64,000 bases of DNA from Vibrio penaeicida (lineage in GTDB: Bacteria > Pseudomonadota > Gammaproteobacteria > Enterobacterales > Vibrionaceae), in the NCBI RefSeq assembly GCF_019977755.1, contig NZ_AP025144.1, forward strand, positions 1,364,001 to 1,428,000, given 5' to 3'. The notes below the pieces were generated by a model. The model saw nothing but the letters and a program-made list of their open reading frames with translations. It was not told where the DNA came from and ran no database searches. The translations under genes and the position numbers were made by a program. Shown here in pieces: positions 8,393-28,918 of the stretch; positions within the stretch are counted from its first letter, which is position 1, and every line of letters starts with the position of its first letter.

Positions 8393-8469
8393 GTCAAGAA
8401 ATGATTTAGGTCTGGAATTGCTATAGCTCTAGAACTTTTCAAGCATAACTGGTTGTAAGTAAAGAAGAG

Positions 8470-8497
8470 GGAGAGCTCATGCCAAATCGAGCTCTCC
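8470..8497 (-). terminator. Stem-loop downstream of the lipoprotein gene
   Basis: A 9-bp perfect inverted repeat GGAGAGCTC / GAGCTCTCC with a 10-base loop, 14 bases beyond the stop at 8512. On the minus strand it is followed by a pyrimidine-rich stretch but not by a clean T run. Confidence 0.5.
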
Positions 8498-8511
8498 AAA
8501 CTCAACTTGGG

Positions 8512-9723
8512 TTAAAGGGTGATTGTTTTGTCTTTGAAGACCAGTTTTTCTATATGGCTTAAGTTGTTTTTACCGTCTCTGCGTTGTTGCTTGTCTTTAA
8601 TGGTAACTGAGCCGTCGCTATGCTTTTCGATTGTGTAAGCCGAAGCGTTTCCTGAAAAGAACACTTTGTTTGTTGCTGCGTTTCCAGTGATTTCATTGTC
8701 CATAGAATTGACGATTACATTCGAAGGATTCGATCCCGTTAATGTAATGTTTTTAAGGTATTGAGAATGGTGAGTATAGGGAACGGATTCGTTAAAACGT
8801 AAGCTAAAATCACCAGTAAAACTTCCATCAATTCGAGCATTGTATGTGAGGTAAGAGTGGAAGAATTTATTGTTCATTAATTCCGCACCAAGGGTGTCTT
8901 CCAGAGCAATTTCCTTACGGCTTTTTGCGGTATAAATTCCCCACATTCCATGCTTATTGCTTTCCGACCAAGCCCCCCATAGACCGTAGTAGGAATCAAT
9001 GACTGATGCGAGATATTCTTGTGACAGGCTGTTTTCTTCTGTCAGTTCATTTATCCAGTTTTTTTGGTCAATACCCCCTCCCCACAATCGGTGCGCTAAG
9101 GCGTAATATTGCGCTTGCCGTATTTCAGCTTGAAACGCTGGCAGTGCTCCCATGAACGTATCTTCTTGATCAATACCGATTCCGCAGTCGTGAACCAAGT
9201 GCAGAATTTCTTCAAATGTCGCGTCGCGGTGGTCGTAGTTTTGATTGATATACCATTTGTGCCCTTCAACTTGGATTTCATTTTGGTACAGCGGTTGACC
9301 ACCTAAATCCGAGGCAGGGTTAGAACCATCGTCCTCACCATTCAGAAGCAAGAGTACTGCATTGTTATCTGCCATTTTGTTGGCGACTTGGGTTTTGTCT
9401 GATCCAAACTGTGAATTGAGGAGAGGGGTTAAGTAATGCTCTAACACCGATCTCGCACGAACAATTTGATTGTCTGATAGCTCGTTTTGCGCGATCAGGT
9501 GTATTGCCTTTCCATTTGGCGCAAGTACTTTTGTGTAGCGATTGAATTTCATTTCAATGCTGTAGGTTTCTGAAAGTGTGTCGGGTACATCTTCAATTCC
9601 TAGGCTTTTTGTTTCTTCAGAAAGAGGAATAAAAGCGGCAGAGGCATTACTTGTGCTGTTACAGCCAGTTAAGTTAAACGTGATGGATGTGGCAAGCAAA
9701 CTAGTAAGAACGAAACGCTTCAT
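8512..9723 (-). CDS. Lipoprotein of unknown function, RTX-like C-terminal tail
   Basis: A 403-residue protein with a lipobox (LTGC, Cys21). The middle contains a His/acid cluster, EEILHLVHDCG (residues 171-181), which could bind metal but is not a standard HExxH zincin motif. The last 100 residues look like the beta-strand tail of peroxidase- or RTX-type secreted proteins: YTIEKHSDGSVTIKDKQ, then NNLSHIEKLVFKDKTI. I do not recognise the family. It sits alone between the inositol left arm and the DUF2975/HTH pair, with no visible link to inositol metabolism. Confidence 0.75.
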   Translation of the reverse strand: MKRFVLTSLLATSITFNLTGCNSTSNASAAFIPLSEETKSLGIEDVPDTLSETYSIEMKFNRYTKVLAPNGKAIHLIAQNELSDNQIVRARSVLEHYLTPLLNSQFGSDKTQVANKMADNNAVLLLLNGEDDGSNPASDLGGQPLYQNEIQVEGHKWYINQNYDHRDATFEEILHLVHDCGIGIDQEDTFMGALPAFQAEIRQAQYYALAHRLWGGGIDQKNWINELTEENSLSQEYLASVIDSYYGLWGAWSESNKHGMWGIYTAKSRKEIALEDTLGAELMNNKFFHSYLTYNARIDGSFTGDFSLRFNESVPYTHHSQYLKNITLTGSNPSNVIVNSMDNEITGNAATNKVFFSGNASAYTIEKHSDGSVTIKDKQQRRDGKNNLSHIEKLVFKDKTITL

Positions 9724-9880
9724 TTTGGTATCCCGCTGTGCACTTCGTCAGAGGCGAAGTGTTGGCTATGTGGTTATATCAGTAGATCTTAGCATTTCAT
9801 GAATTAATCGTGTGTTGGGTAAGCGAATGTAAGGGTGAGTCTTCTAACTTTCTCCCCAGTATTTCTTATTCTTAAAGAGT

Positions 9881-9909
9881 ATTAAATTATCGTTTTTCGA
9901 TAATTTAAT
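9881..9909. promoter_or_regulatory. 12-bp inverted repeat, candidate operator of the HTH/DUF2975 pair
   Basis: ATTAAATTATCG and CGATAATTTAAT are perfect inverted copies separated by TTTTT, ending 36 bases before the start of the DUF2975 gene. The position and symmetry suit autoregulation by the small HTH protein encoded just downstream. Confidence 0.5.
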
Positions 9910-9945
9910 GTTGATCTTCGATTCTTTACGATTTAGTATGCGCTT

Positions 9946-10518
9946 ATGCAATCAGATGAGATTCACCTAATGTCAAAGATCCAAAATCAAAGCCGCCGCG
10001 TGCGAATTCTATTTCAATGTTTGTTTGTATTAACGCCTATTATGGTTTGTTACTACTGGCTAACGGTGGAGACGCCGTATGACTTTTTAACCTCAATGGG
10101 CATCATTGAAATGAGCTTCAAGACTAATGATTTCACCTCCTTACCTTTGTCTATCAGCACCCGGGTATACATAATGATCGCGAGTTTGATGTTGTGCAGC
10201 ATTATTATGTATGCGCTGACGCTGTTAATCCGGCTGTTCAAGAACTACGAACGCGATGAAATCTTTTCGTTGGAGAATGCCAATTACTACCAAAAGCTCG
10301 GCTACAGCTTGTTTTACTGGGTTGGTGGTTCGCTCATTTATGGCGCAGCAACATCAGTGATTCTGTCGTTCAACAACACACCTGGTAAACGTATGTTGTC
10401 GGTAACTTTTGAAGGTCTGGATTTGCTGACGCTTATGTTTGGCTTTATCGTGGTGATCATTTCTTGGGTAATGAAAGAAGGTCATGCACTTGCAGACGAA
10501 AACCGCCATACCATTTAA
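9946..10518 (+). CDS. DUF2975 membrane protein
   Basis: A 190-residue protein with four predicted transmembrane helices (about 25-45, 70-95, 125-145 and 160-180) and a short cytoplasmic FKNYERDEIFSLENANYYQKLG loop typical of DUF2975 proteins. The start could also be the ATG at 9970; neither has a good ribosome site. The gene is followed 9 bases later by a small XRE-type regulator. DUF2975 and YozG-like HTH genes commonly travel together, the HTH protein probably controlling the pair. The membrane partner's function is unknown. Confidence 0.85.
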   Translation: MQSDEIHLMSKIQNQSRRVRILFQCLFVLTPIMVCYYWLTVETPYDFLTSMGIIEMSFKTNDFTSLPLSISTRVYIMIASLMLCSIIMYALTLLIRLFKNYERDEIFSLENANYYQKLGYSLFYWVGGSLIYGAATSVILSFNNTPGKRMLSVTFEGLDLLTLMFGFIVVIISWVMKEGHALADENRHTI

Positions 10519-10527
10519 GGGCTTATC

Positions 10528-10743
10528 ATGACGATTTGTATTAATTTAGATGTAATGATGGCCAAAAGGAAAATGCGATTAAAGACGCTGGCTCAAGAAG
10601 TGGGGATTACCGAAGCTAATTTGTCGGTGTTAAAGAATGGCAAAGCAAAAGCCGTACGTTTTTCAACGTTAGAAAAGTTGTGTGAAGTACTTGAATGCCA
10701 ACCGGGTGATATCTTGGAGTATCAAGCAGAGCAATCAGAGTGA
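10528..10743 (+). CDS. YozG-like small HTH (Cro/C1 family) regulator
   Basis: A 71-residue protein that is essentially one helix-turn-helix domain: TLAQEVGITEANLSVLKNGKAKAVRFSTLEKLCEVLECQPGDILEY. It matches the YozG-like Cro/C1 family. It is the second gene of an operon with the DUF2975 membrane protein. The perfect inverted repeat at 9881-9909 is a plausible target. No antitoxin-style toxin partner is visible, so a toxin-antitoxin reading is not supported. Confidence 0.9.
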   Translation: MTICINLDVMMAKRKMRLKTLAQEVGITEANLSVLKNGKAKAVRFSTLEKLCEVLECQPGDILEYQAEQSE

Positions 10744-10773
10744 TTTTCTAAGGTCGCAGGAAGGTTGGACAAA

Positions 10774-10807
10774 AATAAAGGCGTGATGGGATATTCACGC
10801 CTTTATT
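10774..10807. terminator. Bidirectional terminator
   Basis: A 13-bp inverted repeat (AATAAAGGCGTGA / TCACGCCTTTATT) with an 8-base loop between the convergent HTH gene and the leftward inositol operon. A/T tracts on both sides let it serve both strands. Confidence 0.85.
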
Positions 10808-10845
10808 GTCTGACTGGGTATACGCCATTCAGCGCGACAAACATC

Positions 10846-12006
10846 TTAGGAGGTTAGCGCAACCCATTGGCTGTCTGAATCTCTTGAGTTTAATGCCGCA
10901 AACACAAAAGCCATACCTTCAGCACCTTCTTCCACACGAGGATATTCAAGGCACAGTGGGTTAGGTTCCTCTCCCGATTCCAGTGCCACAATGTGATTCG
11001 CCAAATCAAAATACAAATTAGCGAATGCTTCTCGATAGCCCTCCGGATGCCCAATAGCAACATGAGATACTCTTTGTGCTTCAGGCAATAATCCTTTACC
11101 CCCTTTGGTTAAGGTATATGCAGGTGCATCTAACGGTCTAACAAGTAATTCATTGGGCTGTTCTTGGTTCCACTCTATGCCACCTTTTGTACCATAAATC
11201 GTGAAACTCAAGCCATGTACGCCACCAGCTGCAGCTTGAGTGACAAATAGCTGACCTCGCGCACGATTTGAATATCGCAATTGCACTCCACAATAATCGT
11301 CTGCTTGACGCCCATCCACCAAGGCAGTGACATCAGCACTGATTTTTTCAGGGATCATTCCTGACACATAACTAAGCAAGTGATAGCTGTGGGTTGCGAT
11401 ATCGCCCAGTATCAATGAAGGACCTGCTAACTCAGGTTTCATGTGCCAATTAGACTCATCAAGTTCGCTGGGCGTTAGCTCAGCCAAATGCCCTTGGATA
11501 TAGTTGCTTTGAAGCATTTTTATATCGCCAATGACACCATTTTTTATCATGGCGCGTGCTTGGCGTACCATGGCATAGCCCGTGTAGCCGTATGCAACGC
11601 AATAACACTTCTTACTTTGCTTGGCTTTGGCAACAAGATGGTTTGCTTCTTCTTCGTTCATTGTGAGCGGTTTCTCACACATTACATGAAAACCCATTTC
11701 TAGAGCTTGAATGGACAAGGCGTAATGAGTGTTGTTGGGCGTCATAATCGCAATCACATCTGCACCATCTGCTCGGCTTTGTTCCTGAGAAAATAACGCA
11801 TCAGGCGAAGCGTATCCTCGAAAGCCCAAAGATTCAGCGGCTTTCAAAGAACGGTCTGGGTTCGAAGAAAAAACACCGGCCACCACTTCAAATTCTTCGT
11901 GCATAGTGGCAGCACTTCGGTGAATAGACCCGATAAACGAATCGGGACCTCCACCAATCACAGCAAGCCTTAACCTTCGTCCAAGTTTTTGTATCGAGAG
12001 GCTCAT
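10846..12006 (-). CDS. Gfo/Idh/MocA family oxidoreductase, last gene of the iolD operon
   Basis: A 386-residue NAD(P)-dependent oxidoreductase. The N-terminal Rossmann motif is VIGGGPDSFIG, the catalytic lysine lies in CEKPL, and the C-terminal alpha/beta domain contains GDIATHSYHL. It is closest within the window to the oxidoreductase at 14889-16070 (shared GYTGYAMVRQAR / GYTGHVMVQQAR and GPSxIxGDxxTH), not to IolG. Such paralogues in inositol clusters handle other isomers (scyllo-, D-chiro-) or keto-inositol reduction. The isomer cannot be read here. It is separated from the aldolase gene by 103 bases containing a tandem repeat. Confidence 0.87.
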   Translation of the reverse strand: MSLSIQKLGRRLRLAVIGGGPDSFIGSIHRSAATMHEEFEVVAGVFSSNPDRSLKAAESLGFRGYASPDALFSQEQSRADGADVIAIMTPNNTHYALSIQALEMGFHVMCEKPLTMNEEEANHLVAKAKQSKKCYCVAYGYTGYAMVRQARAMIKNGVIGDIKMLQSNYIQGHLAELTPSELDESNWHMKPELAGPSLILGDIATHSYHLLSYVSGMIPEKISADVTALVDGRQADDYCGVQLRYSNRARGQLFVTQAAAGGVHGLSFTIYGTKGGIEWNQEQPNELLVRPLDAPAYTLTKGGKGLLPEAQRVSHVAIGHPEGYREAFANLYFDLANHIVALESGEEPNPLCLEYPRVEEGAEGMAFVFAALNSRDSDSQWVALTS

Positions 12007-12071
12007 ATTCTTTCCTTTTATCAGCTAGGAGAAAGGTGCGTACACGTGAGTTCTGCGCAAAAATAGTTTAT

Positions 12072-12133
12072 TCCGGAGCAAGAAAAATCTAGTCTGGAGC
12101 AAGAAGAGCCTAGTCTGGCGCAAGAAGAGATAG
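12072..12133. repeat. Three 21-bp tandem repeats across the aldolase stop codon
   Basis: Units start at 12072, 12093 and 12114 (last unit 20 bp), consensus TCTGGAGCAAGAAGAGCCTAG. Read on the minus strand they repeat the last codons of the aldolase, each ending in an in-frame stop: LLAPD-stop, ALLAPD-stop, IFLAPE-stop. Confidence 0.85.
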
Positions 12134-12940
12134 CACGCGCACAACTTCTTCTTGAAGTGTAGGTATTGCAGCCAGAGCGAATCGACTTCTATCGAAATGT
12201 AAGTCTTCCTTCATCAACGCACGAACTTTGCACCCCATTGCCATCCTAAGTGTGGTCCCTACATTAAATTTTGCCACTCGGGTCCTTTTGAGCTTTTGTA
12301 GATCATCAGGGTGAATTCCTGAAGTGCCGTGTATGACCAAAGGAATTGGCATGTCTTCTTCAATGTCTTGCAAACGCTTAAAATCAATAGGGCTGTCTGC
12401 TCGCATTTTACGGTGCACATTTCCAACGGATACCGCTAACGCATCGACGCCACTCTCTTTAGCGTACTGCCAAGCCTCGTTTGCTGAGGTGATAATTGAC
12501 TGAATGTGATCTCGACCTTCTTCATAGGGTACGGATCCTAGCTCTCCTTCTAAAGAAACACCCAGTGACTTAGCCACTTTTGCTACTTGTTGGGTACGCG
12601 CCAAATTTTCTGAAAAAGGCAATTGAGAACCATCAAACATAACGGAGCTGAAACCCGCATGCATCGCCTGGTACACGATCGATTCTTCATAGCAATGATC
12701 AAGATGAACAACGACGGGAACTTGGCTTTTCTTGGCGATAGGAACCAGCATTCCTGCCATCACATCTACGCCAGCCAGATCCACCATGTCTTTATTAACG
12801 GCAAGGATTACAGGTCGGTTAATGGCTTCCGCTCCTTGCACAATCGCGATAGCTTCTTCGATTCCAAACACATTGCAGCAAGCGATAGCGCCTGAGCTAT
12901 CGGCCGCTTGAGGAAGTATCTCATTGAGTGATACGAGCAT
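12110..12940 (-). CDS. iolJ: Class II ketose-bisphosphate aldolase, IolJ-like
   Basis: A 276-residue zinc-dependent aldolase of the fructose-bisphosphate/tagatose family. Zinc and catalytic positions are visible: D81-H82 (HLDHCY), E133 (EGELG), H176 (VGNVHRKM) and H204 (VIHGTSG), with the phosphate-binding FNVGTT stretch near 225. In this operon it most likely cleaves 2-deoxy-5-keto-gluconate-6-phosphate to dihydroxyacetone phosphate and malonate semialdehyde. The same reaction is expected from the DUF2090 domain of the fused kinase at 30953, so the step is duplicated. The gene starts 17 bases after iolB copy 2. Confidence 0.85.
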   Translation of the reverse strand: MLVSLNEILPQAADSSGAIACCNVFGIEEAIAIVQGAEAINRPVILAVNKDMVDLAGVDVMAGMLVPIAKKSQVPVVVHLDHCYEESIVYQAMHAGFSSVMFDGSQLPFSENLARTQQVAKVAKSLGVSLEGELGSVPYEEGRDHIQSIITSANEAWQYAKESGVDALAVSVGNVHRKMRADSPIDFKRLQDIEEDMPIPLVIHGTSGIHPDDLQKLKRTRVAKFNVGTTLRMAMGCKVRALMKEDLHFDRSRFALAAIPTLQEEVVRVLSLLAPD

Positions 12941-12957
12941 TTTGTTTTCTCTCCCTT

Positions 12958-13815
12958 TTATTTGAACTTCGCGACCATGTCTTTAATACCTGGAATGGTT
13001 TCCACTTGGTATTCATGGTTGGGGTCGAAAAATTGCACCAAAGATTTGCTTGTTTCGCCTACGATAATGGTGAAGTAATACATTTCATAACCCGGTGCGG
13101 CCACGCTTGGGTGATAGCCTTTGTCTATCGCGATCACACTGCCTGTTTTAACGTGATAAACCGGTCCTTGATCATCATGGTGTTCATATAAAAACTGCGC
13201 ACCAAAGCCATGTCCGGGGTTGAAACGGAATTGGTAAACTTCTTCATAACGGCTTTCAGTAGGGAGCCTATCTTCATCGTGTTTATGTGGTGGAAATCCT
13301 GACCAGCCTCCGGCACCAACGGTGAAGAGTTCGCTCACAAGCAAGCGCCCACGGTTGTCGGCGTTTTTTTGACCAAGGATGTGTTTGATTTTTCGGTGAG
13401 TTTTTGTGTCGTCGCTGCCATATTGCACTTTGTCTACGTCATCAGGCGTGACAGCAAAAGGCTCGAGTTCGGGGCGATCTTCATCGCCGTAGTATCCGCC
13501 AGCAATCAGTACATCAGCAGAGTCGCTCATACAGGTAATGTTGGCTGTTGATCCAACGGGTACATAGACAGCGGAAGGGTCGCCTTCCCAAACCGAATTT
13601 CGTTTTCCTACGCCCGGAAACGACTTCTCGTTTACCGATATGTCACAAGTTCCTCCTGCTAACACAACCACACTTTCATAGTTATCTAAGCTGTATTGGT
13701 AGGATTCACCCTGTTTCAACGAGACTGGGTTGAAGTAACACAACGGGGTCGTGTCATCATTAATATCAATGACGGGTTCGTTTTTGTTGTTAAACGGTGG
13801 AATATGCTTACCCAT
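12958..13815 (-). CDS. iolB: 5-deoxy-glucuronate isomerase IolB (copy 2, divergent)
   Basis: A 285-residue IolB-family bicupin. Metal ligands are conserved: H177 and H179 (PPHKHD), E191 or E192 and H235 (DKGYHPS). Between these it differs strongly from copy 1: EEVYQFRFNPGHGF replaces EETYYHRLNPEQGF, and the N-terminal half is barely alignable by eye. It may be specialised for the product of another inositol isomer or simply be an older paralogue. It overlaps the end of iolC by 8 bases, implying translational coupling within the iolD operon. Confidence 0.9.
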   Translation of the reverse strand: MGKHIPPFNNKNEPVIDINDDTTPLCYFNPVSLKQGESYQYSLDNYESVVVLAGGTCDISVNEKSFPGVGKRNSVWEGDPSAVYVPVGSTANITCMSDSADVLIAGGYYGDEDRPELEPFAVTPDDVDKVQYGSDDTKTHRKIKHILGQKNADNRGRLLVSELFTVGAGGWSGFPPHKHDEDRLPTESRYEEVYQFRFNPGHGFGAQFLYEHHDDQGPVYHVKTGSVIAIDKGYHPSVAAPGYEMYYFTIIVGETSKSLVQFFDPNHEYQVETIPGIKDMVAKFK

Positions 13816-14899
13816 GACACGACTCCTTGTTGGTTAGCAGTGAAAATTGAGGGGAAAATGGGTGATTTTGTGATTGCATGAATTCAAGCAGCTCAGGTAA
13901 TGTCGACATCGCATCAGAACAGGTATTCCCAGTCACATTAATGGCGGCATTTGCACTGCCCATAGCGACGCAGTCTTGCAGGGGCTGCCCATGCAATAGC
14001 CCAAAAATCAATGCGCCTGCAAAAGCGTCTCCTGCTCCGTACGGCTTTTTCGCAACCACATTGAATATGCCTTGGGTTGTGCTGGTGAGATTTTTGTTGC
14101 TGTCGGAACCAAAGATTCTGCACCCATTTTCACCCGCTTTCGCAACCACCAATTCGGCTTGTTTGCATAAAACCTGGGCGGCAATGAGTGCCATCTCTTC
14201 GCTGTCTTTATGGTGAAGCGCACTGCCTTGCATAACTTGATACTCTTCTTCGTTCCCGATGACGACATCACTTATCGATGAGGCTTTTTGGTAACAATCG
14301 GCAGCTTCTTCTGCGCTCTCCCACGAATAAGCGCGATAATCTAAGTCGAGTACGACCTTACAGCCATGCGCTTTGGCTAACTTCATCGCTCGTAAAGTCG
14401 ATTCACGGGAAGGAGATTGCGACAGTGCCGTGCCTGATACAATCAGAGCTCGAACATCTGAAAAATCAACGGTATCGACGTGATCAAAATTCAGGGCGAG
14501 GTCCGCAGCTAGATTTCGGTATATGACCACTTCAGGGTTAGGATCAAACTCAGCCAACGCGAGGCTGGTTCGATATTCTCCCTGAACGGCAAATAAATAC
14601 GTTGTGCCGATGGAATGTGTATCTAGCGTGTCTTTTACGTATTGCCCAACCCCATCTTCTGATACGCAACTTAAAACCGAAGAATGCGCTCCCAGTTTAG
14701 ACAGTGCAAAAGCGATATTCGCAGGAGAGCCGCCTACGGCTTTGTGGAAGGTTGATGTGCTTCCTAGAGTTGCTCCGAAGTCATTGGCATACAGATCCAT
14801 GCCTGCTCGTCCGAGGCAAAGTGCATCGATAGGGCGATTATAATGTTCGGTCCAATCACTTAAACGTATTTCATTTTTGGGGTTGGTATTAGTTGTCAT
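13808..14899 (-). CDS. iolC: 5-dehydro-2-deoxygluconokinase IolC (stand-alone copy)
   Basis: A 363-residue PfkB-family sugar kinase that phosphorylates 2-deoxy-5-keto-gluconate. The N-terminal LCLGRAGMDLYAND and GGSPANIAFALSKLG (substrate/lid region) and the C-terminal ATP/anion-hole motif GAGDAF (288-293, D291 catalytic) are visible. Unlike the second kinase in this region it lacks the DUF2090 extension. It overlaps the upstream oxidoreductase by 11 bases and iolB copy 2 by 8 bases, so the operon is tightly coupled. Confidence 0.92.
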   Translation of the reverse strand: MTTNTNPKNEIRLSDWTEHYNRPIDALCLGRAGMDLYANDFGATLGSTSTFHKAVGGSPANIAFALSKLGAHSSVLSCVSEDGVGQYVKDTLDTHSIGTTYLFAVQGEYRTSLALAEFDPNPEVVIYRNLAADLALNFDHVDTVDFSDVRALIVSGTALSQSPSRESTLRAMKLAKAHGCKVVLDLDYRAYSWESAEEAADCYQKASSISDVVIGNEEEYQVMQGSALHHKDSEEMALIAAQVLCKQAELVVAKAGENGCRIFGSDSNKNLTSTTQGIFNVVAKKPYGAGDAFAGALIFGLLHGQPLQDCVAMGSANAAINVTGNTCSDAMSTLPELLEFMQSQNHPFSPQFSLLTNKESCHG

Positions 14900-16070
14900 C
14901 GTAGCTCACCCATATTGCGCCTTTATCGGCAGACTCAACACAGGACTCGACAAACTTAACGCCACTGATACCTGCATCAATATCTGGATACCAATGGGTG
15001 GAAAGAAAGTCGGTGTCTTTGCGTTCAAAGGCGTCTATAGCCAAGGCATAGCGGTGGTAAAGATTTGCCCACGATTCAAAGAATCCCTCACCATGACCTC
15101 CTCCAATACGCGAACTGCTCACACCAGCCGCGTCGTTATGAAGGTATGGCATTCCTCGCTCCATGACTTGCGCAGGTTGCCCTTGAATTTCATAACGCAA
15201 TTGGTTCGGATATTCATCCCACCATTCTATGCTGGCTTTTTCACCGACAATGCGGATTTTTTGCTGATGCATCGATCCTGCGTTTATTGCACTTGCCCAC
15301 ATAGTGCCTGTCGCGCCATTGTCGAAATTCATAATGACGTGCGCGTTATCTTCGAGTGGCGAGCGCGATTCAATGAAAGATTGCCTAGCACATAAAAGGG
15401 ACGTCACTTTTAACCCCGTGATCAGTTCCGCTAAGTAAAAAACATGAGTGCCGCAATCTCCAATGATAAAGCTTGGTCCTGAAACTTCAGGGTTCATGCG
15501 CCATTTTGCTCCGGGGGAGTTTTTTTCCACTTCTACGTTGTGGTACCCGTGGGCAAACTGCATTTGAATAACACGAACTGCGCCGATATCACCCCTATGC
15601 ACCATTTCACGCGCCTGCTGAACCATCACATGGCCGGTATAGCCATACATAACAGCCAACATGCGATTATTTTGATGGGCTATCGCTTTAAGCTCTTCTG
15701 CTTCAGTGGCATGAAAAGTCACAGGTTTCTCACAAATCACGTGCAGCCCAGCTTCTAATGCCGCTTTGGCTATTTCGTAGTGCGTTGCGTTTGGCGTTGC
15801 AATGGAGACGGCTTGAATACCATTTTCTTTTTTGGCTTCTTCTTCGAACATCACCTTATAGCTGGGGTAGCATCGGTCTTTTTCTAAGCCTAGGTTGGTA
15901 CCAAAGTCTATGCAGCGCTGGTGGTCAATATCTAATGCACCAGCTACAAATTGAAACAGACGATCCCGAGCGGCAGCTGCACGATGAGAATGACCAATTT
16001 CACTGCCTCGCCCACCCCCAATGAGCCCCCAACGAATGGGGGTGTCAAAGTGTTTTTCTTCATTAAACAT
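14889..16070 (-). CDS. Gfo/Idh/MocA family oxidoreductase, second gene of the iolD operon
   Basis: About 393 residues from the ATG at 16070, chosen because AGGAG (overlapping the iolD stop) precedes it; an upstream extension has no ribosome site. The Rossmann motif is GLIGGGRGSEIG, the catalytic lysine lies in CEKPV, and GDCGTHVFYL carries the Asp/His pair. It resembles the oxidoreductase at 10846 more than IolG. Its likely role is a dehydrogenase for an inositol isomer or keto-inositol, feeding IolE. Starting 10 bases after iolD, it is certainly co-transcribed. Confidence 0.87.
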   Translation of the reverse strand: MFNEEKHFDTPIRWGLIGGGRGSEIGHSHRAAAARDRLFQFVAGALDIDHQRCIDFGTNLGLEKDRCYPSYKVMFEEEAKKENGIQAVSIATPNATHYEIAKAALEAGLHVICEKPVTFHATEAEELKAIAHQNNRMLAVMYGYTGHVMVQQAREMVHRGDIGAVRVIQMQFAHGYHNVEVEKNSPGAKWRMNPEVSGPSFIIGDCGTHVFYLAELITGLKVTSLLCARQSFIESRSPLEDNAHVIMNFDNGATGTMWASAINAGSMHQQKIRIVGEKASIEWWDEYPNQLRYEIQGQPAQVMERGMPYLHNDAAGVSSSRIGGGHGEGFFESWANLYHRYALAIDAFERKDTDFLSTHWYPDIDAGISGVKFVESCVESADKGAIWVSYDDN

Positions 16071-16080
16071 CTGGCTACTC

Positions 16081-17937
16081 CTAAATGCCTCGTCGTTGAT
16101 AACGCCGACCTTCATCCCAAGTTTCTTTTGCTTTAACAACTTCTTCTCGATCGGTTATTTCTGGCAGTCCGACTTCCCACCACGCATCAACCGACGACCA
16201 GAGCGTTGGGTCGATATCAACGACAAGTACGTAAGTTTGATCCGCTGCTTTTGCGCGGCTAAAAGCGGCCTCAAAGCCATTGAGGCTGTCTACCTTTTCT
16301 GCTATCGCCCCTAAGCCTTGAGCGTGCTTAACAAAATCAACTCTTGGAAGCTCTGTTTCTTGTCGGATTGACGTACAGTCTTTCAGTAAATTGTTAAAAC
16401 TCTCGTTGCCCGTGTTGTTTTGAAGCTTGTTGATCACTGCAAATCCACCGTTATCACAAACGATCACAATCATTTTGTGACCCGTTAAAACGGAGCTGTA
16501 AATGTCTGAATTGAGCATTAAGTATGAGCCGTCACCAACGAGAACAATGGCGTCACTGTTGTCCAGAGCCATTTTCGCACCCCAACCAGCTGCCACTTCG
16601 TAACCCATACAAGAGAAACCAAATTCAATATCTAACTGACCTGATTGGCTCGCTTGCCAGTTCATGTTGAGTTCTGCAGGTAAACCACCTGCTGCGGTTA
16701 TGACTCTGTCGTCAGGCGATGCCAGCTGATTCACTTTGCCAATAACCTGTGCATAGGACGGTGTGGCTGTCTCCGAAGGTCGGGTGCGTTCTGCAACGAT
16801 ATCCAACCATTTCTGTCTCTCTTGGCGAGCGAAAATTGACCATGTTTTGTCCACATTCCAGTGTGTTAGCATCGGGCTAATCTGTTCGAGTGCTGCTTTG
16901 GCATCGGCTTGTATCGGGCATGAAAGGTGCTTAATAACGTCGAAACGGCACGTGTTAACACTGATCAACTTCATGTTCTCATCGCGAAAAACGGTCCAAG
17001 AACCTGTAGTGAAATCTTGTAAACGTGTACCGATAGCTAATACCAAGTCTGCTTGTTCGGCGATGTTATTTGCGCTGTCGGAGCCCGTCGCACCAATTGG
17101 TCCACAATTTAAGGGATGTGAGGCTGGCAAGAGAGTTCGACCTGCAATGGTTTCAATTACGGGGATGCCATACTTTTCAGCAAACTCTTGAAGCTGCTGT
17201 TGCGCCTCGCTGTAAAACACACCACCTCCAGCCACTATTACCGGTTTCTTGCTCTGCTTAATCAGTGTGGCGGCAGCTTCTAAGTCTTCGAATTCAGGCT
17301 GAGGGCGTCGAATTCGGTGTACTTTTTTCTCAAAAAATACTTCAGGGAAATCCCAGGCGTCACCTTGAGTATCTTGAGGTAGCGCCAAAAAAACCGGGCC
17401 GCAATCACCAGGATCCAGCAAAGTCGCCATAGCTTGTGGCAAAGAGGCGACTAATTGCGCGGGACTGGTAATGCGATCCCAGTAACGACTCACCGGTTTG
17501 AATGCGTCGTTAACCGTTAGGGTCGGGTTATTGAAATGCTCGGTTTGCTGTAAAACCGGATCCGGCAAGCGAGAGTTAAAGGTGTCGCCTGACAAAAGCA
17601 ATAATGGGAGTCGGTTGGTGTGAGCAACACCAGCCGCCGTAATCATATTCGTGGCTCCCGGTCCAACCGACGATGTAGCAATACCAATACGTTTTCTCTT
17701 GTTAGCACGTGCATAGGCTATAGCCGCAAGCGCCATCGATTGTTCATTCTGCCCGCGCCAAGTCGGGAACACATCTTGGTTTTCTAAGAGTTGTTGACCC
17801 AAACAGGTCACGTTCCCATGACCGAAAATAGCAAACGCGCACCCAAATAAGGATTCTTCTTTACCTTCTACTTCTATGTATTGCGCTGTCAGGTAGCGAA
17901 CGAGCGCTTGAGCTGTTGTGAGTCTTACCGTTGTCAT
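16081..17937 (-). CDS. iolD: Trihydroxycyclohexane-1,2-dione hydrolase IolD
   Basis: A 618-residue thiamine-diphosphate enzyme that opens the ring of 3D-(3,5/4)-trihydroxycyclohexane-1,2-dione to give 5-deoxy-glucuronate. The catalytic Glu lies in GQNEQ (E65). The central domain contains VIVAGGGVFYSEA, and the C-terminal TPP/magnesium motif is GDG (468-470) followed by CDNGGFAVI. AGGAG precedes the ATG. It is the only IolD in the window, so both IolB copies must depend on it. It heads the leftward operon, with a LacI-type operator about 55 bases upstream of its start. Confidence 0.95.
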   Translation of the reverse strand: MTTVRLTTAQALVRYLTAQYIEVEGKEESLFGCAFAIFGHGNVTCLGQQLLENQDVFPTWRGQNEQSMALAAIAYARANKRKRIGIATSSVGPGATNMITAAGVAHTNRLPLLLLSGDTFNSRLPDPVLQQTEHFNNPTLTVNDAFKPVSRYWDRITSPAQLVASLPQAMATLLDPGDCGPVFLALPQDTQGDAWDFPEVFFEKKVHRIRRPQPEFEDLEAAATLIKQSKKPVIVAGGGVFYSEAQQQLQEFAEKYGIPVIETIAGRTLLPASHPLNCGPIGATGSDSANNIAEQADLVLAIGTRLQDFTTGSWTVFRDENMKLISVNTCRFDVIKHLSCPIQADAKAALEQISPMLTHWNVDKTWSIFARQERQKWLDIVAERTRPSETATPSYAQVIGKVNQLASPDDRVITAAGGLPAELNMNWQASQSGQLDIEFGFSCMGYEVAAGWGAKMALDNSDAIVLVGDGSYLMLNSDIYSSVLTGHKMIVIVCDNGGFAVINKLQNNTGNESFNNLLKDCTSIRQETELPRVDFVKHAQGLGAIAEKVDSLNGFEAAFSRAKAADQTYVLVVDIDPTLWSSVDAWWEVGLPEITDREEVVKAKETWDEGRRYQRRGI

Positions 17938-23704: not shown

Positions 23705-23780
23705 TATAATTTCACTTATCAAATAGCCGCAATAAATATGGCTTTACTCTCATAAATTTTTGAGAGTAATAATCATTTCA
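23705..23780 (+). promoter_or_regulatory. Candidate promoter and leader hairpin of the cytochrome operon
   Basis: The 337-base gap after lacI is AT-rich. TATAAT at 23705-23710 is a good -10 element with a poor -35. A 9-bp inverted repeat (TTACTCTCA / TGAGAGTAA, 23744-23769) lies in the presumed leader. The stretch 23762-23780 matches a Fur-box consensus at 13 of 19 positions, which is weak in such AT-rich DNA. No inositol-type operator was found here. Confidence 0.35.
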
Positions 23781-23902
23781 TTCTGAATTTTAGAACAAAA
23801 CGTGATATCGGTATATCTCGTCTTCTTCTTACACTTATCCTCTGGGCATAATTTCCATTCAACGCGTTGAATTATAATTACTTTTGTCAATTCGAGGAAA
23901 AA

Positions 23903-25204
23903 ATGAAAAGGACTCATATTCTTAAGCTGAGCACTATGGCTGCGGCTTTACTTAGTTGTGTTGCGACTGCAGCACCAATGGATCCAAATGATGACAATGC
24001 ATACCGTCATTTCCCAGCCAGCGTATCGGCTGAGATAGAAAGTAAGTATTACCTGTATAAAGATTCGCACGCGAAAGATCTTATTTGGTATGTGCCCAAA
24101 TCTGGTTACGTTTCCTACCGTGGTCGAGGAAATAACACTCGTCCAAACTTCAACGCATCTAGCTACGTGCCAAGGTTCGGTACTTGGGCGGCACTTCGCC
24201 CTGGTGAAGCTCAAATCCGTATGGGTGGCGCATTCAATACAATGGGACGTGTGGAAGATGTTAACTTCTTAAAGCTTGAAGCTGAGAAAGTAGGCTTTAA
24301 AGTTTCTCCTGCAGTAGTCAATCGCGGCACGGCGTTATTTGTTGTTGATGGCATTGATGCTAACGCAGACGGCCGAATTGACGTGCAGTGTGTGGACGAG
24401 CCTCTGACTATCACAGATGCGTTTGGTGAAACAGTCAATGTCAATATCAATAAGTGTTCCGTGACTGCCATTGATGGTACTCAACAAGAAACCTCTATTG
24501 TAGAGAAAGCTTACGCTAAGGTACCAAGTGGTAGAACTAGCTCCTCTGTGAATGTTCCTTTCCAGTTAGTGACGTTGCCTGATAACGACATGACCAACGT
24601 CATTCAAGACGACCTCATGGTGGGTAACAGCTTAGCTCCATACTTTAGCCTTGTCGTTGATTGGGAGCTGGAAACAGAAAGAGCGACACGTGCTGCACGT
24701 ATTACTGTCGACTGGAATCAGACATTCGAACAAGCGCATACATTTGCGGCTTACCACAACTACGCTTGTGTCGATATTGAAATCCAAGCGTTCTTTAAAA
24801 AACTCGTTCAGGAAGGAAAGGGCGTTTACGTTGAATACTATAACCCTGAAACTGGGCAGTATGAAGAGAAAGCACCAAACCAAGCGGCATTCATAAAAGC
24901 AGTCGAAGGCATTCAAGCAGAGCTGCAAGCAGAGTTGTTTGATCAAATTCAAGAGTACAGCCAATCACAACTAGGGCAAGTAGACACTAGTACCAACGCT
25001 ATGTGGACGTTACGCGCTAACTATGAGAAGCAAATCCTGAAACGTCACGAAACCAGAACCATTAACTGGAACCCTGGTATGTCAATGGAAACAGTACAAA
25101 CTGAAATGAGTGTGGACTGTGTTGTTGGTGGATTCGGAATGCCTGTTGAATGGAGCACCGAAGTAGGTTGTCACGCGATTGTTGATGACGTCACTACGCC
25201 GTAA
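23903..25204 (+). CDS. Exported protein of unknown family, paralogue A of the cytochrome operon
   Basis: 433 residues from the ATG at 23903, which has GAGGAAAAA upstream; an in-frame extension to 23867 is less likely. The signal peptide ends near VATA (24), and mature APMDP follows. I do not recognise the family. Visible features are YYLYKDS...LIWYVPKSG, GGAFNTMG, FVVDGID followed by an EF-hand-like loop (DANADGRID, 152-160), a Cys pair 163/185, WELETERATRAARITVDW, and a C-terminal pair C406-x16-C423 enclosing GG-F-x-MPVEW. The same landmarks occur in the protein at 27503, so the two are paralogues. The product is presumably periplasmic or secreted. Confidence 0.85.
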   Translation: MKRTHILKLSTMAAALLSCVATAAPMDPNDDNAYRHFPASVSAEIESKYYLYKDSHAKDLIWYVPKSGYVSYRGRGNNTRPNFNASSYVPRFGTWAALRPGEAQIRMGGAFNTMGRVEDVNFLKLEAEKVGFKVSPAVVNRGTALFVVDGIDANADGRIDVQCVDEPLTITDAFGETVNVNINKCSVTAIDGTQQETSIVEKAYAKVPSGRTSSSVNVPFQLVTLPDNDMTNVIQDDLMVGNSLAPYFSLVVDWELETERATRAARITVDWNQTFEQAHTFAAYHNYACVDIEIQAFFKKLVQEGKGVYVEYYNPETGQYEEKAPNQAAFIKAVEGIQAELQAELFDQIQEYSQSQLGQVDTSTNAMWTLRANYEKQILKRHETRTINWNPGMSMETVQTEMSVDCVVGGFGMPVEWSTEVGCHAIVDDVTTP

Positions 25205-25275
25205 CGGAGAGTAACTCTAGGTTATGGCTCTCGTCATAATCTGGATTATTGCTCTTTGTAACGCTAATGCAGTGT

Positions 25276-25300
25276 TTAGCCCACGAAGTTCGTGGGCTAA
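25276..25300 (+). repeat. Intercistronic perfect hairpin
   Basis: TTAGCCCACGAA and TTCGTGGGCTAA are 12-bp perfect inverted copies around a single G. The element lies between the first two genes of the cytochrome operon and ends 3 bases before the AAGGA ribosome site of the second gene. No T run follows, so it is more likely an mRNA-stability or attenuation element than a terminator. Confidence 0.8.
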
Positions 25301-25314
25301 TTCAAGGACTACCT

Positions 25315-26286
25315 ATGATGAAATTGACTCATTTACTTGCTAGTGCCGCACTCGTTTCAGCAGTGTCGGCGCATGCTAGCGATTACACGCTGTCTTTGTT
25401 GGATTTTAATTCCACAATAGACAACGGCGACATCGTTTTTGCCCCATTTAAAAATACCACACGTGGCACGGGTTACGTTTGGTTTAGAGATTATGAATAC
25501 GACTATCGGCTCCCTGTTGCTGGAGAGTATCGAACTAAAACAATAACGGTCAGCTTTGTTCCGAGAAGTGTTCAGAGCGGAGAATTTACAACTTTTGCTC
25601 GGGAAAACAACATCCGGCCAAACAGAAAGACCATCGTTCCTGACGATGCAATTCTTTGTCAGCCTACTCAAGCGTTAACCGACTTGCTTACCACATTTGA
25701 GTACTCGTCTGTGTCAACACGTCAACCTGGTTACCCTAAATTGTGTAGCTTAGTGATTCGTTACAACACCAGCTCAGCCAAAGAAGCTCAATTACTTGAA
25801 CTTATCGATACTAAGCAGTTAATGCATGCAAAGTTTTCTTTGTCAGACCCTGCTGATCAGCCTGCACCTGGTGTGTTCATCGAAGTACCAAGTATTGTCA
25901 ATCAGTTGGTTGAACAAAAGGTACTGGAACACGATCTACCATTGCCAACTGAACCACCAGTACAACCAGACCCACCAGTGTCATCTGAGCCAACATCAGG
26001 CGAACAAGGGGAAACCAGTCCCCCTCATGTCGATATTGGATGGTATGGATTGAGTCAAGGTATTAACTTTTACTCTTCACATGTCGATCCGACTTTGTTT
26101 GGCTTTGATGTTGGAACAACTATAGACAAGTCGCTGCTGTTTCAACGTTGGACGCAGTTCATAGATCTCTTCTTAGTGGTAGACGAGCAGCCTGGATACT
26201 GGGTTATTCCAGAAAAAGCAGCATCGGAAAAGATCGTTATTTCAGAGCCTATGCCTTCAACCCCGTTCGTTGAGGTTATGTACTGA
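25315..26286 (+). CDS. Exported protein with proline-rich linker, unknown family
   Basis: 323 residues from the ATG at 25315 (AAGGA 7 bases upstream). The signal peptide ends at SAHA (about residue 21), and mature SDYTLSL follows. The N-terminal part (22-205) is beta-rich with one Cys pair (C115, C144). A Pro/Glu-rich linker (about 208-237, PTEPPVQPDPPVSSEPTS) leads to a C-terminal piece of about 85 residues (GWYGLSQGINFYSSHVDP...). The linker suggests a protein spanning the periplasm or joining two domains. No known domain was recognised. It is followed 6 bases later by the cytochrome gene. Confidence 0.8.
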   Translation: MMKLTHLLASAALVSAVSAHASDYTLSLLDFNSTIDNGDIVFAPFKNTTRGTGYVWFRDYEYDYRLPVAGEYRTKTITVSFVPRSVQSGEFTTFARENNIRPNRKTIVPDDAILCQPTQALTDLLTTFEYSSVSTRQPGYPKLCSLVIRYNTSSAKEAQLLELIDTKQLMHAKFSLSDPADQPAPGVFIEVPSIVNQLVEQKVLEHDLPLPTEPPVQPDPPVSSEPTSGEQGETSPPHVDIGWYGLSQGINFYSSHVDPTLFGFDVGTTIDKSLLFQRWTQFIDLFLVVDEQPGYWVIPEKAASEKIVISEPMPSTPFVEVMY

Positions 26287-26292
26287 TTTTCT

Positions 26293-27513
26293 ATGCCTTT
26301 TCTTATTACCTACTTAAGTTGTATGTGGGTTCGTTGCGTTCTAGTTTCCTTGCTAGGCGCAACGTTTTTACTGTCTTTCAATGGATACGCTCTTGAGTTG
26401 GATAATCGCACTTACAAAACGGCGATTGAGCAAGAATGCCATGGCTGCCATTTTGATAACCGAATGAAACCCGTCGGAACGTTGCCAAATGGTTCTCGAA
26501 AATGGACAGATCAAAAGTGCGTGGCGTGCCATACAGAAATTGACGAAATAGCGTACAACTACAGAAATAAGATCTCAGATCCACGATACGTCGCACTTCC
26601 AGTGAAGGACAAACGTCTTGAATCTATGGAGAAATACCCCCTTTCTTATTTACATGCACCCATATGGCCGATGTTTGAAAAACAAACGGTCAGAGTTAAC
26701 CGAAAAACGTTAGTCAAATTCCTCAACGCCCCACATGGTACCTGTGACGGCAATAGCTGCAATGCCCCTAAAATGATGGCTTACACCAATATTTCTGAAG
26801 ATGAAGTGATAGCGATCAATGAGCATTTGGGCGCTATACCCAATGAATCGGATTTGGAGGTGAAAGGCTCGATAAAGAAGGGAGAGGCGTTGTTTAAACA
26901 GAGTTGTTCTATGTGTCATGGCAATAGCCAGTTATCAGGCTATAACGCGAATGCGATGAGTTTGTTTTCTGCAGATTGGATCCACCAATATGCCAATGGT
27001 AAGGCGGTGGAAGGGAGAAGCATGCCCAAACTGCCAATCTCTCGTCGCGATGCTCATGACCTTTATGCTTATTTTCAACACTCACGTTCTGAAAATGAAG
27101 AAGCCTTAGCCAAGGCTGTTTCGCAAGTATCGGCTGATTTCGAACAACTTCCCACAGGGAGCATTCCGCCTAAAGCGCTGAACTATATATGGAACCGTTT
27201 ATGGCGAGATACGGGCTGTGTGCATTGTCATGGTATTGAGGGAAGGGCGAAAGAGGTGTTTAACATGGCTGGCAAGGAGCATATAGAGCAGTGGCTAAGT
27301 GAAAACGACCCGAGCATTTTGTACCAACGGTTGGCTATACGGGAAAAAGAGAAAGAGTTTGGTATGGGAGCGACTCCAGCAGGGATGCCTGCAACGGGGC
27401 GCCCACTACCTAAACCACTCATTAAATTACTGGGTATCTGGATAAAGTCTGGTTGCCCAAATGAAAAGAACGAAAATATTTGCAAGGAAAAATGGAATCA
27501 CCATGCGCAATAA
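26293..27513 (+). CDS. Exported c-type cytochrome with four CXXCH motifs
   Basis: A 406-residue protein with an N-terminal hydrophobic signal (about 11-34). There are four haem-binding motifs: CHGCH (49-53), CVACH (76-80), CSMCHG (205-210) and CVHCHG (309-314). The first pair is close together like a dihaem unit; the last two each begin a class I cytochrome c-like fold, with downstream Met residues (RSMPKL, GMPATGRPLP) as possible axial ligands. A further CDGNSC (151-156) lacks the His. The start has no clear ribosome site and MWVRC at 26323 is possible. It presumably transfers electrons in the periplasm for its three exported neighbours. The last 11 bases overlap the next gene. Confidence 0.88.
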   Translation: MPFLITYLSCMWVRCVLVSLLGATFLLSFNGYALELDNRTYKTAIEQECHGCHFDNRMKPVGTLPNGSRKWTDQKCVACHTEIDEIAYNYRNKISDPRYVALPVKDKRLESMEKYPLSYLHAPIWPMFEKQTVRVNRKTLVKFLNAPHGTCDGNSCNAPKMMAYTNISEDEVIAINEHLGAIPNESDLEVKGSIKKGEALFKQSCSMCHGNSQLSGYNANAMSLFSADWIHQYANGKAVEGRSMPKLPISRRDAHDLYAYFQHSRSENEEALAKAVSQVSADFEQLPTGSIPPKALNYIWNRLWRDTGCVHCHGIEGRAKEVFNMAGKEHIEQWLSENDPSILYQRLAIREKEKEFGMGATPAGMPATGRPLPKPLIKLLGIWIKSGCPNEKNENICKEKWNHHAQ

Positions 27514-28879
27514 AATCGTAAACACCCTTATTCAGTGCTTATTGCTGATATCTGTCTTCAACAGTGGCGTGACCGCCGCTCCCATAGACCCTTCATTAAA
27601 AAATGTAGAAGCCGAATTTCCCGCAGATATTCTGCATAAGTTTTACCTTTACGGTGATACCGTAGACGCAAATCTAGTGTGGTTTGTGCCTAAATTTGGT
27701 TCGATCGCACGAGATAACACTGGGTTTAATCAACCAGAGTTCGATATCGGCAGTGCTTATAGTGAACATCCTAATTATTTCCCAGGAGAGGAGCTGGTTT
27801 GGTTCAGTGGCGCGTTTGATACGAGAGGATTTGAAAAAGATATTGAGCATTTGTCTCAGGTCGCGTCTCAAAAAGGGTATCGAATCTTAGCGGCACAACC
27901 CAAAGCTGCTGAGACGTATTTTGTGGTTGATGGTGTCGACGTACAAAGTTTAGATTTGGATTGTTCTGAAAGCATTAGTACGTCATATGGGGATTTTCCA
28001 ATTTGCTATGTTTTCGATCAGCAAGGCCAAAAGCACCCCGCGGAATTTGTAGCAAAGTTAGAATCGACGCTGCCAGAAAACACTATGAGTGATTATGTCG
28101 GTTTTAGAGGAATAACGGTCCCTTATTGGAAGGACACATTAAAAGACCTAATGGGGTACGGCTTAGCGATCAATGACCCCTTCGTGGGACAAAACTGGGA
28201 CGATAAAATTCAGGTAGTGACAGTGTGGGAGCTAGACACACACTACAATCGACCTAGAGCGCGAATCAACATCAATTGGCCAGATCTGGTACATCGTTTT
28301 ATTGAGTTTCAAAAAGCACACCCTGCGTTACTCACGGTGAGTGACATCAAACACCAAATAAATTCATGGGTTAGAGTTGCTCTCGCGACACAAAATGCCC
28401 CTTTTTATCTCCACACATTCAGTGCAAACAATGATGTTAACTTGATTACTGATGCCGTATATAAAGTGTTGAGCAAGAGAAGGCTGTTTGTTCCTCAGTG
28501 GGTGTTCACACGACCACCAATCAAGACGAATGTTTCGTCAAATGCCACTCGCAGTGAAAAGCGCTTGGTACCTATTGCTAATGGTGGGATTACGTTTTTT
28601 GTACCCGCGACGATAACAGTCAAACCAGAACTAAGATTTGCGATTAATCGTTCAGCGGCAAACCAGCCAAGACAAGACATTGATTTGCACTATGGTCCAA
28701 GTGTCCTTACCCTCAACCCACAAACTAATATGTACATTGAGTGCTTACATGGTGGGTGGAATTTACCTGTTAGATGGGCACGTACCTCTGCGTGTTTGGA
28801 TACCCATTCCGATAACCAAGCTCGCCCACGTATTGGTTTAGAGGCGATGAAGAAGTTTATGCCCTCCTCGTTGAGGTAA
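27503..28879 (+). CDS. Exported protein of unknown family, paralogue B of the cytochrome operon
   Basis: 458 residues from the ATG at 27503, which overlaps the cytochrome stop (27511-27513) and so is translationally coupled. The signal peptide ends near GVTA, and mature APIDP follows. It aligns by eye with the protein at 23903: FYLYGDT...LVWFVPKFG, SGAFDTRG, YFVVDGVD, Cys pair 154/168, WELDTHYNRPRARININW, and the C-terminal pair C414-x16-C431 enclosing GGW-x-LPVRW. It lacks the EF-hand-like loop of paralogue A. The family is not recognised. Duplication and divergence around a cytochrome suggest a heteromeric periplasmic assembly. Confidence 0.85.
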   Translation: MRNKIVNTLIQCLLLISVFNSGVTAAPIDPSLKNVEAEFPADILHKFYLYGDTVDANLVWFVPKFGSIARDNTGFNQPEFDIGSAYSEHPNYFPGEELVWFSGAFDTRGFEKDIEHLSQVASQKGYRILAAQPKAAETYFVVDGVDVQSLDLDCSESISTSYGDFPICYVFDQQGQKHPAEFVAKLESTLPENTMSDYVGFRGITVPYWKDTLKDLMGYGLAINDPFVGQNWDDKIQVVTVWELDTHYNRPRARININWPDLVHRFIEFQKAHPALLTVSDIKHQINSWVRVALATQNAPFYLHTFSANNDVNLITDAVYKVLSKRRLFVPQWVFTRPPIKTNVSSNATRSEKRLVPIANGGITFFVPATITVKPELRFAINRSAANQPRQDIDLHYGPSVLTLNPQTNMYIECLHGGWNLPVRWARTSACLDTHSDNQARPRIGLEAMKKFMPSSLR

Positions 28880-28885
28880 ACAATG

Positions 28886-28918
28886 ACGGCATGCAGGTAA
28901 ATGATTGCATGCCGTTTT
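28886..28918 (+). terminator. Terminator of the cytochrome operon
   Basis: A 10-bp perfect stem ACGGCATGCA / TGCATGCCGT with a 10-base loop and TTTT tail, between the convergent operon end and the VOC gene. Confidence 0.85.

What the first reader, a model, noticed from the sequence alone, without database searches (positions are those of the whole stretch)
23705..28918. Unrecognised four-gene exported-protein/tetrahaem cytochrome operon inside an inositol cluster
Seen: four co-directional genes, all with signal peptides, in tight operon arrangement (gaps of 6 bases or an 11-base overlap, plus a 110-base gap holding a perfect hairpin). The first and last are paralogues sharing YLY.DS/T, LVWFVPK, SGAF-TRG, FVVDGVD, WEL...RARI and C-x16-C around GG[FW]x[ML]PVxW. 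A tetrahaem-type cytochrome lies between them, plus a Pro-rich linker protein. I recognise no family for three of the four. Inference: a heteromeric periplasmic redox or surface assembly, possibly adopted into this region by insertion between the LacI regulator and the mmsA arm. This is my best candidate for an undescribed system.
Basis: partly seen in the sequence, partly recalled or inferred. Interest (0 to 1): 0.75.

Follow-up and report, generated by a model that had tools for sequence, protein, structure and literature searches.

The report
Undescribed exported protein–tetrahaem cytochrome operon
Four neighbouring genes in a marine Vibrio encode exported-looking proteins, one of them a four-haem electron carrier, that are found together in distantly related bacteria yet match no named system; the first gene looks built to be made in much larger amounts than the rest.

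Summary
The four genes are real: A 23903-25204, B 25315-26286, C (four CXXCH) 26293-27513, D 27503-28879, a paralogue of A. A, B and D match no family in Pfam, NCBIfam, PHROGs or PADLOC above cut-off; C stays below every NCBIfam cut-off. A-B-C lie together in the same order in 13 of 13 loci from Gammaproteobacteria, Myxococcota and Bdellovibrionota. Searched from C instead, 4 of 4 C-bearing genomes (of 395) carry A, B, C and D. It is rare: A in 4 of 329 Vibrionaceae genomes. New evidence: A has the best codon adaptation of its operon in 15 of 15 loci (two further loci do not follow); a strong hairpin fills the A-B gap in 12 of 13 loci versus 7 of 30 control gaps, and in 10 of 10 further loci; A has an odd number of cysteines in 20 of 20 relatives, D-type and B even. 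I read A as the abundant major component of an exported, probably disulfide-linked assembly, with B, D and the cytochrome as minor parts. The inositol setting is incidental. Export, assembly and redox role are inferred.

The parts
23857..23880 (+). Promoter region of A: perfect palindrome ATTCAACGCGTTGAAT beginning 46 bases before the A start codon, followed by a TATAAT-like box
   Evidence: a TCAANNNNTTGA perfect palindrome begins at -44 in 4 of 4 Vibrionaceae sets examined (window, L009, L032, L033 intact copy), with three different cores (CGCG, CTAG, GCGC) that each keep the symmetry; absent at this place in the other 13 upstream regions. It is the only perfect palindrome of that form in the 64-kb window. 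Operator role is inferred.
23903..25204 (+). Gene A: exported-looking protein of 433 aa, inferred major component
   Evidence: no Pfam match among 20 of 20 relatives at E <= 0.01; best codon adaptation of its operon in 15 of 15 loci; 5 or 7 cysteines after residue 30 in 20 of 20 relatives.
25276..25300 (+). Perfect 12-bp hairpin between A and B
   Evidence: hairpin in the A-B gap with z <= -2 in 12 of 13 loci against 7 of 30 control gaps.
25315..26286 (+). Gene B: exported-looking protein of 323 aa with a Pro-rich linker in this species, two conserved cysteines
   Evidence: no Pfam match among 18 of 18 relatives at E <= 0.01; AlphaFold2 model, mean pLDDT 84.4.
26293..27513 (+). Gene C: tetrahaem c-type cytochrome, 406 aa (CXXCH at residues 49, 76, 205, 309)
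   Evidence: Cytochrome_CBB3 PF13442 E 6e-10 on residues 194-260; four CXXCH in 13 of 13 loci.
27503..28879 (+). Gene D: paralogue of A, 458 aa, lacks A's extra cysteine
   Evidence: D-type genes have an even number of cysteines in 6 of 6.
28886..28918 (+). Terminator-like hairpin after D
   Evidence: 10-bp perfect arms, 10-nt loop, TTT tail; not listed by the scan, which allows loops of 3-8 only.

Best explanation
The operon encodes one exported multi-protein assembly. A is its abundant major component. A hairpin after A caps or stabilises the A message and reduces what follows, so that B, C and D are made in smaller amounts. D is a paralogue of A and a likely terminal or anchoring version of it; B is a small partner; C is a tetrahaem cytochrome c that gives the assembly a redox function at low stoichiometry. 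My preferred step-by-step mechanism, inferred: A crosses the inner membrane by Sec, folds with two internal disulfides (three in myxobacteria), and uses its one remaining conserved cysteine to join subunits; C either takes the electrons of that oxidation or of a substrate held by the assembly and passes them to periplasmic carriers; lineage-specific lipoproteins (RCC1 propeller in myxobacteria, other lipoproteins in Alteromonadales and Cellvibrionaceae) tether the assembly to the outer membrane. Shown: the gene set, its co-inheritance, the four haem motifs, the codon and hairpin asymmetry, the cysteine parity. Inferred: export, assembly, stoichiometry at protein level, disulfide linkage, location, redox role.
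For: A-B-C adjacent and in order in 13 of 13 loci. B and C each found in 16 of 16 genomes or records chosen by A; C once in 15 and twice in G078, which holds two sets. Search from C: 4 of 395 genomes have C and 4 of 4 have A, B, C, D. Distances of A, B and C correlate (A-B 0.87, A-C 0.78, B-C 0.91, 16 loci) and the A and C trees show the same family-level groups. A highest in codon adaptation in 15 of 15 loci, one-sided Fisher p < 0.05 in 13 of 15; the base-composition control is higher in A in only 7 of 15. A-B hairpin z <= -2 in 12 of 13 loci against 7 of 30 controls, Mann-Whitney p 2e-4; z <= -2.7 in 10 of 10 further loci. Cysteines after residue 30: odd in 20 of 20 A, even in 6 of 6 D-type and 18 of 18 B. 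The Agarilytica D-type carries two galactose-binding F5/F8-type C stretches, a surface or glycan hint.
Against: A exists without B and C near it: a second A in Archangium (L039), a D-like gene in Algicola (L040) and a divergent one in G816 (L058) have no B or C recognised in the 17-20 kb read. Codon asymmetry fails in 2 loci: L033 (A 0.37, C2 0.40, B fragment 0.41) and L057 (A 0.38, C 0.45). One of 13 hairpins is not significant by energy (L011, z -0.8) and 7 of 30 control gaps also reach z <= -2. Related genomes are not independent trials. No fold match gives A or B a structural role. No protein-level, localisation or redox data exist here.
Confidence: 0.5

Rival explanations
1. A periplasmic or surface electron-transfer module: C carries electrons between the respiratory chain and an external substrate, and A, B and D are structural or substrate-binding subunits around it, comparable in role to other multihaem conduits.
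For: Four CXXCH in C in 13 of 13 loci and C never missing from an A-B set examined; c7-like and class-I-like haem domains.
Against: No outer-membrane porin or decahaem partner was recognised in the operon; codon usage makes the cytochrome a minor, not the major, product; A can occur without C.
Confidence: 0.2
2. A maturation system: C is an oxidase that chemically modifies or cross-links A (compare, from memory, MauG- or MbnH-type di-haem enzymes) and B is a chaperone.
For: A abundant and C scarce by codon usage, as expected of substrate and enzyme; A-specific extra cysteine.
Against: C's third and fourth haem domains keep Met-Pro motifs (M244-P245, G364-M365-P366; nearly invariant or invariant) that look like axial ligands for electron transfer, not an open catalytic haem; no match to a di-haem peroxidase family was seen.
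Confidence: 0.12
3. A glycan- or host-surface adhesion or degradation system in which the cytochrome feeds electrons to a secreted oxidative enzyme.
For: Two F5/F8-type C stretches in the Agarilytica D-type; several hosts are polysaccharide degraders or surface dwellers (recalled).
Against: The extra domain is in one of six D-type proteins; no oxidative glycan enzyme was recognised in the operons.
Confidence: 0.1
4. No common machine: unrelated exported genes that stay together by chance or by shared horizontal transfer.
For: Patchy distribution and plasmid location in Agarilytica.
Against: Same order in 13 of 13 loci across three phyla, with changing neighbours, correlated divergence and a search from C that returns the whole set.
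Confidence: 0.05

Closest known systems
Cytochrome c class I / cbb3 subunit III-type domains (Pfam PF13442, PF00034)
   Same: Residues 194-260 of C match PF13442, E 6e-10, over its cut-off.
   Different: One domain of three; C also has an N-terminal two-haem region (PF14522 and PF14537 below cut-off) and a fourth haem near the C-terminus. No NCBIfam cut-off is reached by the window protein; best sequence match in the PDB is partial, CcoP E 9.5e-6 over about 35 positions.
Multihaem conduits of the OmcA/MtrC and NrfH kinds (TIGR03507, TIGR03153)
   Same: Weak local similarity around haem motifs in 15 and 11 of 23 C proteins.
   Different: Far below the curated cut-offs for the window protein (17.4 of 209.3 bits and 18.3 of 134.2 bits); four haems; no porin recognised.
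Operons with an abundant major subunit followed by minor subunits behind an intercistronic hairpin (pilus-type operons; recalled, no paper read)
   Same: First gene with stronger codon adaptation and a hairpin after it.
   Different: No usher, chaperone, sortase, pilin or pseudopilin family was matched by A, B or D.
RCC1-repeat and F5/F8 type C proteins
   Same: RCC1-repeat protein directly after C in 6 of 6 myxobacterial loci (one run against Pfam, PF25390 E 7e-180; the rest by similarity); F5/F8-C in one D-type.
   Different: Accessory and lineage-specific; absent from the window's operon.

Membership tests
Any curated family for A (Pfam, NCBIfam, PHROGs, PADLOC) | Match at or above the curated cut-off, or E <= 0.01 where there is none | tested here: not met
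   Window A: no hit over cut-off. No Pfam hit at E <= 0.01 among 20 of 20 relatives.
Any curated family for B | As above | tested here: not met
   18 of 18 relatives without a Pfam hit at E <= 0.01.
c-type cytochrome (C) | CXXCH haem-attachment motifs in an exported protein | tested here: met
   Four CXXCH in the window and in the C gene of 13 of 13 loci; export read by eye; haem attachment not testable here.
ccoP / cbb3 oxidase subunit III (TIGR00782) | Score over 179.95 bits | tested here: not met
   23.6 bits.
OmcA/MtrC decahaem conduit (TIGR03507) | Ten haems and score over 209.3 bits | tested here: not met
   Four haems; 17.4 bits.
Known fold for A | Significant match to a solved or viral predicted structure | tested here: inconclusive
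Known fold for B | Significant match to a solved structure | tested here: inconclusive
Disulfide-linked polymeric surface structure | Major subunit that polymerises on the cell surface | not testable with these tools
   Only indirect signs: codon usage, hairpin, cysteine parity.
Phage or anti-phage system | PHROG or PADLOC match, or presence on viral contigs | tested here: not met
   No match at E <= 0.01; no relative of A in IMG/VR with the patterns used.

The most novel reading that the evidence does not exclude
A new kind of bacterial surface structure: a coat or fibre made mainly of A, joined through A's one unpaired cysteine, whose assembly or function is redox-controlled by a dedicated tetrahaem cytochrome (C) and finished by the paralogue D and by B, shared by marine gammaproteobacteria, myxobacteria and Oligoflexales.
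Probability: 0.2. Interest if true: 0.85.

Novelty: categorically new. Interest (0 to 1): 0.6.

Why it matters
Two protein families (A/D and B) with no curated family, and a gene set kept in order across three phyla, mark a machine that annotation pipelines do not name. The codon, hairpin and cysteine evidence turns 'unknown operon' into a testable claim with named roles: abundant subunit, paralogous partner, scarce redox subunit. If right, it adds an exported redox assembly not tied to the known outer-membrane electron conduits. 'Categorically new' here means that no named system was matched; the general idea of multihaem proteins at the cell surface is known.

Tried and rejected
Rejected or not shown: (a) B as a remote copy of A: profile-profile probability 1.7%, halves compared separately at most 1.2% between A and B. 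(b) Internal repeat in A: none. (c) Insertion into the inositol cluster: the LacI neighbour was found in 1 of 118 genomes, so no empty site. (d) Fold by structure: A and B gave no significant Foldseek match; no family is excluded by the second look. (e) Hairpin as an intrinsic terminator: by eye only L010 and L011 of the 13 gaps (L009 aside) have a clear T run, so message protection or a brake on B is likelier than termination. (f) Viral origin: no relative in IMG/VR with the patterns used.

Literature: eight full-text searches of the PMC library; only search listings were seen, no paper was opened, and no listed title concerned this gene set. Papers outside that library were not searched.

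Limits: ORFs in the fetched loci were called by script, not by a gene finder; control gaps come from those calls. The C start in myxobacterial loci is approximate. In one search the L033 gap was set wrongly (it ran into a broken B copy, and C was taken from the other set); one search repeats it (110-nt gap, z -3.2; A 0.37, C2 0.40). The L033 row also chose a B fragment. L034, L035 and several short loci were fetched and used in no count. L009 was left out of the hairpin test and because it is nearly identical to the window.
Full report
WHAT IS THERE. Four genes run on the + strand: A 23903-25204, B 25315-26286, C 26293-27513, D 27503-28879. A and D are paralogues (28% identity, E 6e-27; probability 100% over 400 columns). 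C has four CXXCH. A perfect 12-bp hairpin lies between A and B, and a terminator-like hairpin with 10-bp arms follows D. The genes are under purifying selection: between the window and Vibrio penaeicida dN/dS is 0.06-0.12. The window's assembly has 6.78 Mb in 3 contigs; the closest relative met is Vibrio penaeicida (L009, A 99.5% identical).

NO NAME FOR IT. A, B and D reach no curated cut-off in Pfam or NCBIfam and have no PHROGs or PADLOC hit at E <= 0.01. No relative in the alignments does in Pfam at E <= 0.01: 20 of 20 A and 18 of 18 B were scanned. No PDB chain matches the A or B profile at E <= 1. In 5.8 billion proteins A had 17 hits, B 6 and C 11. C matches Cytochrome_CBB3 over cut-off but no NCBIfam cut-off; across 23 C proteins the NCBIfam matches are weak, local and inconsistent.

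IT IS ONE SET. A scan of 84,980 species genomes with an A alignment gave 12 loci, and the plasmid collection one more, on plasmid pSU1 of Agarilytica. B and a four-CXXCH C follow A on the same strand in 13 of 13. These come from Vibrio, Cellvibrio, Algicola, Shewanella, Pseudoalteromonas, Agarilytica, Myxococcus (three), Corallococcus, Archangium, an Oligoflexales MAG and a record labelled Comamonas that groups with myxobacteria. In 16 genomes or records chosen by A, B was found in 16 and C in 16, C twice only in G078, which has two sets. A search that starts from C is fairer: 4 of 395 genomes (family of G700) have C at E <= 1e-20, and 4 of 4 carry A, B, C and D. Distances among 16 loci correlate (A-B 0.87, A-C 0.78, B-C 0.91), and the A and C trees recover the same family-level groups, though deeper forks are weak or differ. 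It is rare and patchy: A in 4 of 329 Vibrionaceae genomes, 1 of 369 in a class-wide sample (the window's own), and 16 of 145 genomes of the order of G702, one of them only at E 4e-8.

VARIANTS. D-type genes follow C in L009, L011, L012, L013, L032, L033, L056 and L057, and precede A in L010 and L021. None was seen beside A-B-C in the six myxobacterial loci or L019. The Agarilytica D-type has two F5/F8 type C stretches. Lipoprotein-like partners (lipobox by eye) are common but differ: in 6 of 6 myxobacterial loci a small one between B and C and an RCC1-repeat protein after C (one RCC1 protein tested); a shared family beside the set in L011, L012, L013 and L057, with a fragment in L056; another protein after C in L010 and L021, that of L010 distantly related to A (E 1e-9). 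The Oligoflexales genome has a second, divergent set with two A-like genes (E 3e-30 and 2e-5) and a C-like gene (3e-21); the gene at the B position was not recognised by the B profile.

CONTEXT. In Photobacterium genomes G081 and G078 the full set sits among other genes. Inositol is therefore incidental. The LacI gene beside the set was found in 1 of 118 genomes of the genus.

UNEQUAL AMOUNTS. I scored codons preferred in highly expressed genes (list typed from general knowledge, the same for all genomes). A is highest in 15 of 15 loci; one-sided Fisher p is under 0.05 in 13 of 15 (L020 0.09 and L056 0.14 are not). Base composition does not explain it: C-ending four-fold codons, a mutational control, are higher in A in only 7 of 15. 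In the window A ranks 13th of 63 ORFs, so it is raised, not extreme; B ranks 41st, C 50th and D 55th. Against: A exceeds B in 9 of 10 further loci (L032 and L056 of these are also), failing in L033; one search shows A (0.37) below C2 (0.40) in L033 and below C in L057 (0.38 against 0.45). Synonymous divergence from V. penaeicida is lowest in A (0.03, against 0.14, 0.10 and 0.27 in B, C and D), as expected of strong codon selection, though recombination could also do it.

THE HAIRPIN. The A-B gap holds a hairpin with z <= -2 in 12 of 13 loci (L011 is -0.8, though it has a 10-bp stem) against 7 of 30 control gaps between co-directional ORFs; Mann-Whitney p 2e-4. In 10 further loci z is -2.7 or lower in 10. 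Sequences differ between lineages, so position and fold are kept, not letters. Relatives within myxobacteria and within Vibrionaceae are not independent. B follows the hairpin, C follows B at a few bases or an overlap in the gammaproteobacterial loci. Together with the codons this suggests one message with A in excess.

CYSTEINES. After residue 30, A has 5 or 7 cysteines, odd in 20 of 20; five further A genes are also odd (5, 5, 5, 7, 7). D-type is even in 6 of 6, B in 18 of 18, counting the partial P0022 as zero. C289 of A is invariant in the 20 and missing in D of the window. An exported protein with one conserved cysteine too many most simply pairs with another molecule. This is inference.

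HOW IT MOST LIKELY WORKS. A is exported in bulk and builds the body of an assembly; D is its modified end or anchor; B helps; C is the scarce redox part; lipoproteins anchor it in some lineages. Shown: genes, linkage, codon and hairpin asymmetry, cysteine parity. Inferred: all protein-level statements. Rivals are an electron conduit, a maturation enzyme, and a glycan-directed system.

NOVELTY. No named system was matched. Eight full-text searches of one open library gave no paper on this gene set (listings only).

Noticed in passing
window 23857-23872: Perfect 16-bp palindrome before A; in 4 Vibrionaceae sets a TCAANNNNTTGA palindrome starts at -44 with three different symmetric cores. Looks like an operator of a regulator not linked to the locus.
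   Followed up: partly
L033 (G078), 8224-16925, minus strand: Two tandem A-B-C sets; one A copy and one B copy are broken into pieces, and D follows the second set. Described only.
   Followed up: partly
L041:3496-9347: A second, divergent set in the Oligoflexales genome: two A-like genes, an unrecognised gene at the B position, a small lipoprotein-like gene and a four-CXXCH cytochrome.
   Followed up: partly
L019:3872-4666 and L041:9460-10215: Similar-looking unknown proteins follow C in both Oligoflexales sets (seen by eye); perhaps a regulator of the set.
   Followed up: no
L020 (record titled Comamonas sp. KCTC 72670): Its A and C group with Archangium and its genome falls in the myxobacterial order searched; the record's organism name looks wrong.
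   Followed up: partly
L021:7428-9596: Agarilytica D-type protein with two F5/F8 type C (galactose-binding-like) stretches, on a plasmid.
   Followed up: partly
L039:9984-11318: Archangium has a second A (62% identical to Corallococcus A) with no B or C recognised in 19.9 kb around it; G779 and G804 also have a second A, not examined.
   Followed up: partly
L014:8379-9350 and L015:17103-18137: A protein with a von Willebrand factor A domain lies beyond the RCC1 gene in myxobacterial loci; that of L014 also has a borderline dockerin match.
   Followed up: no
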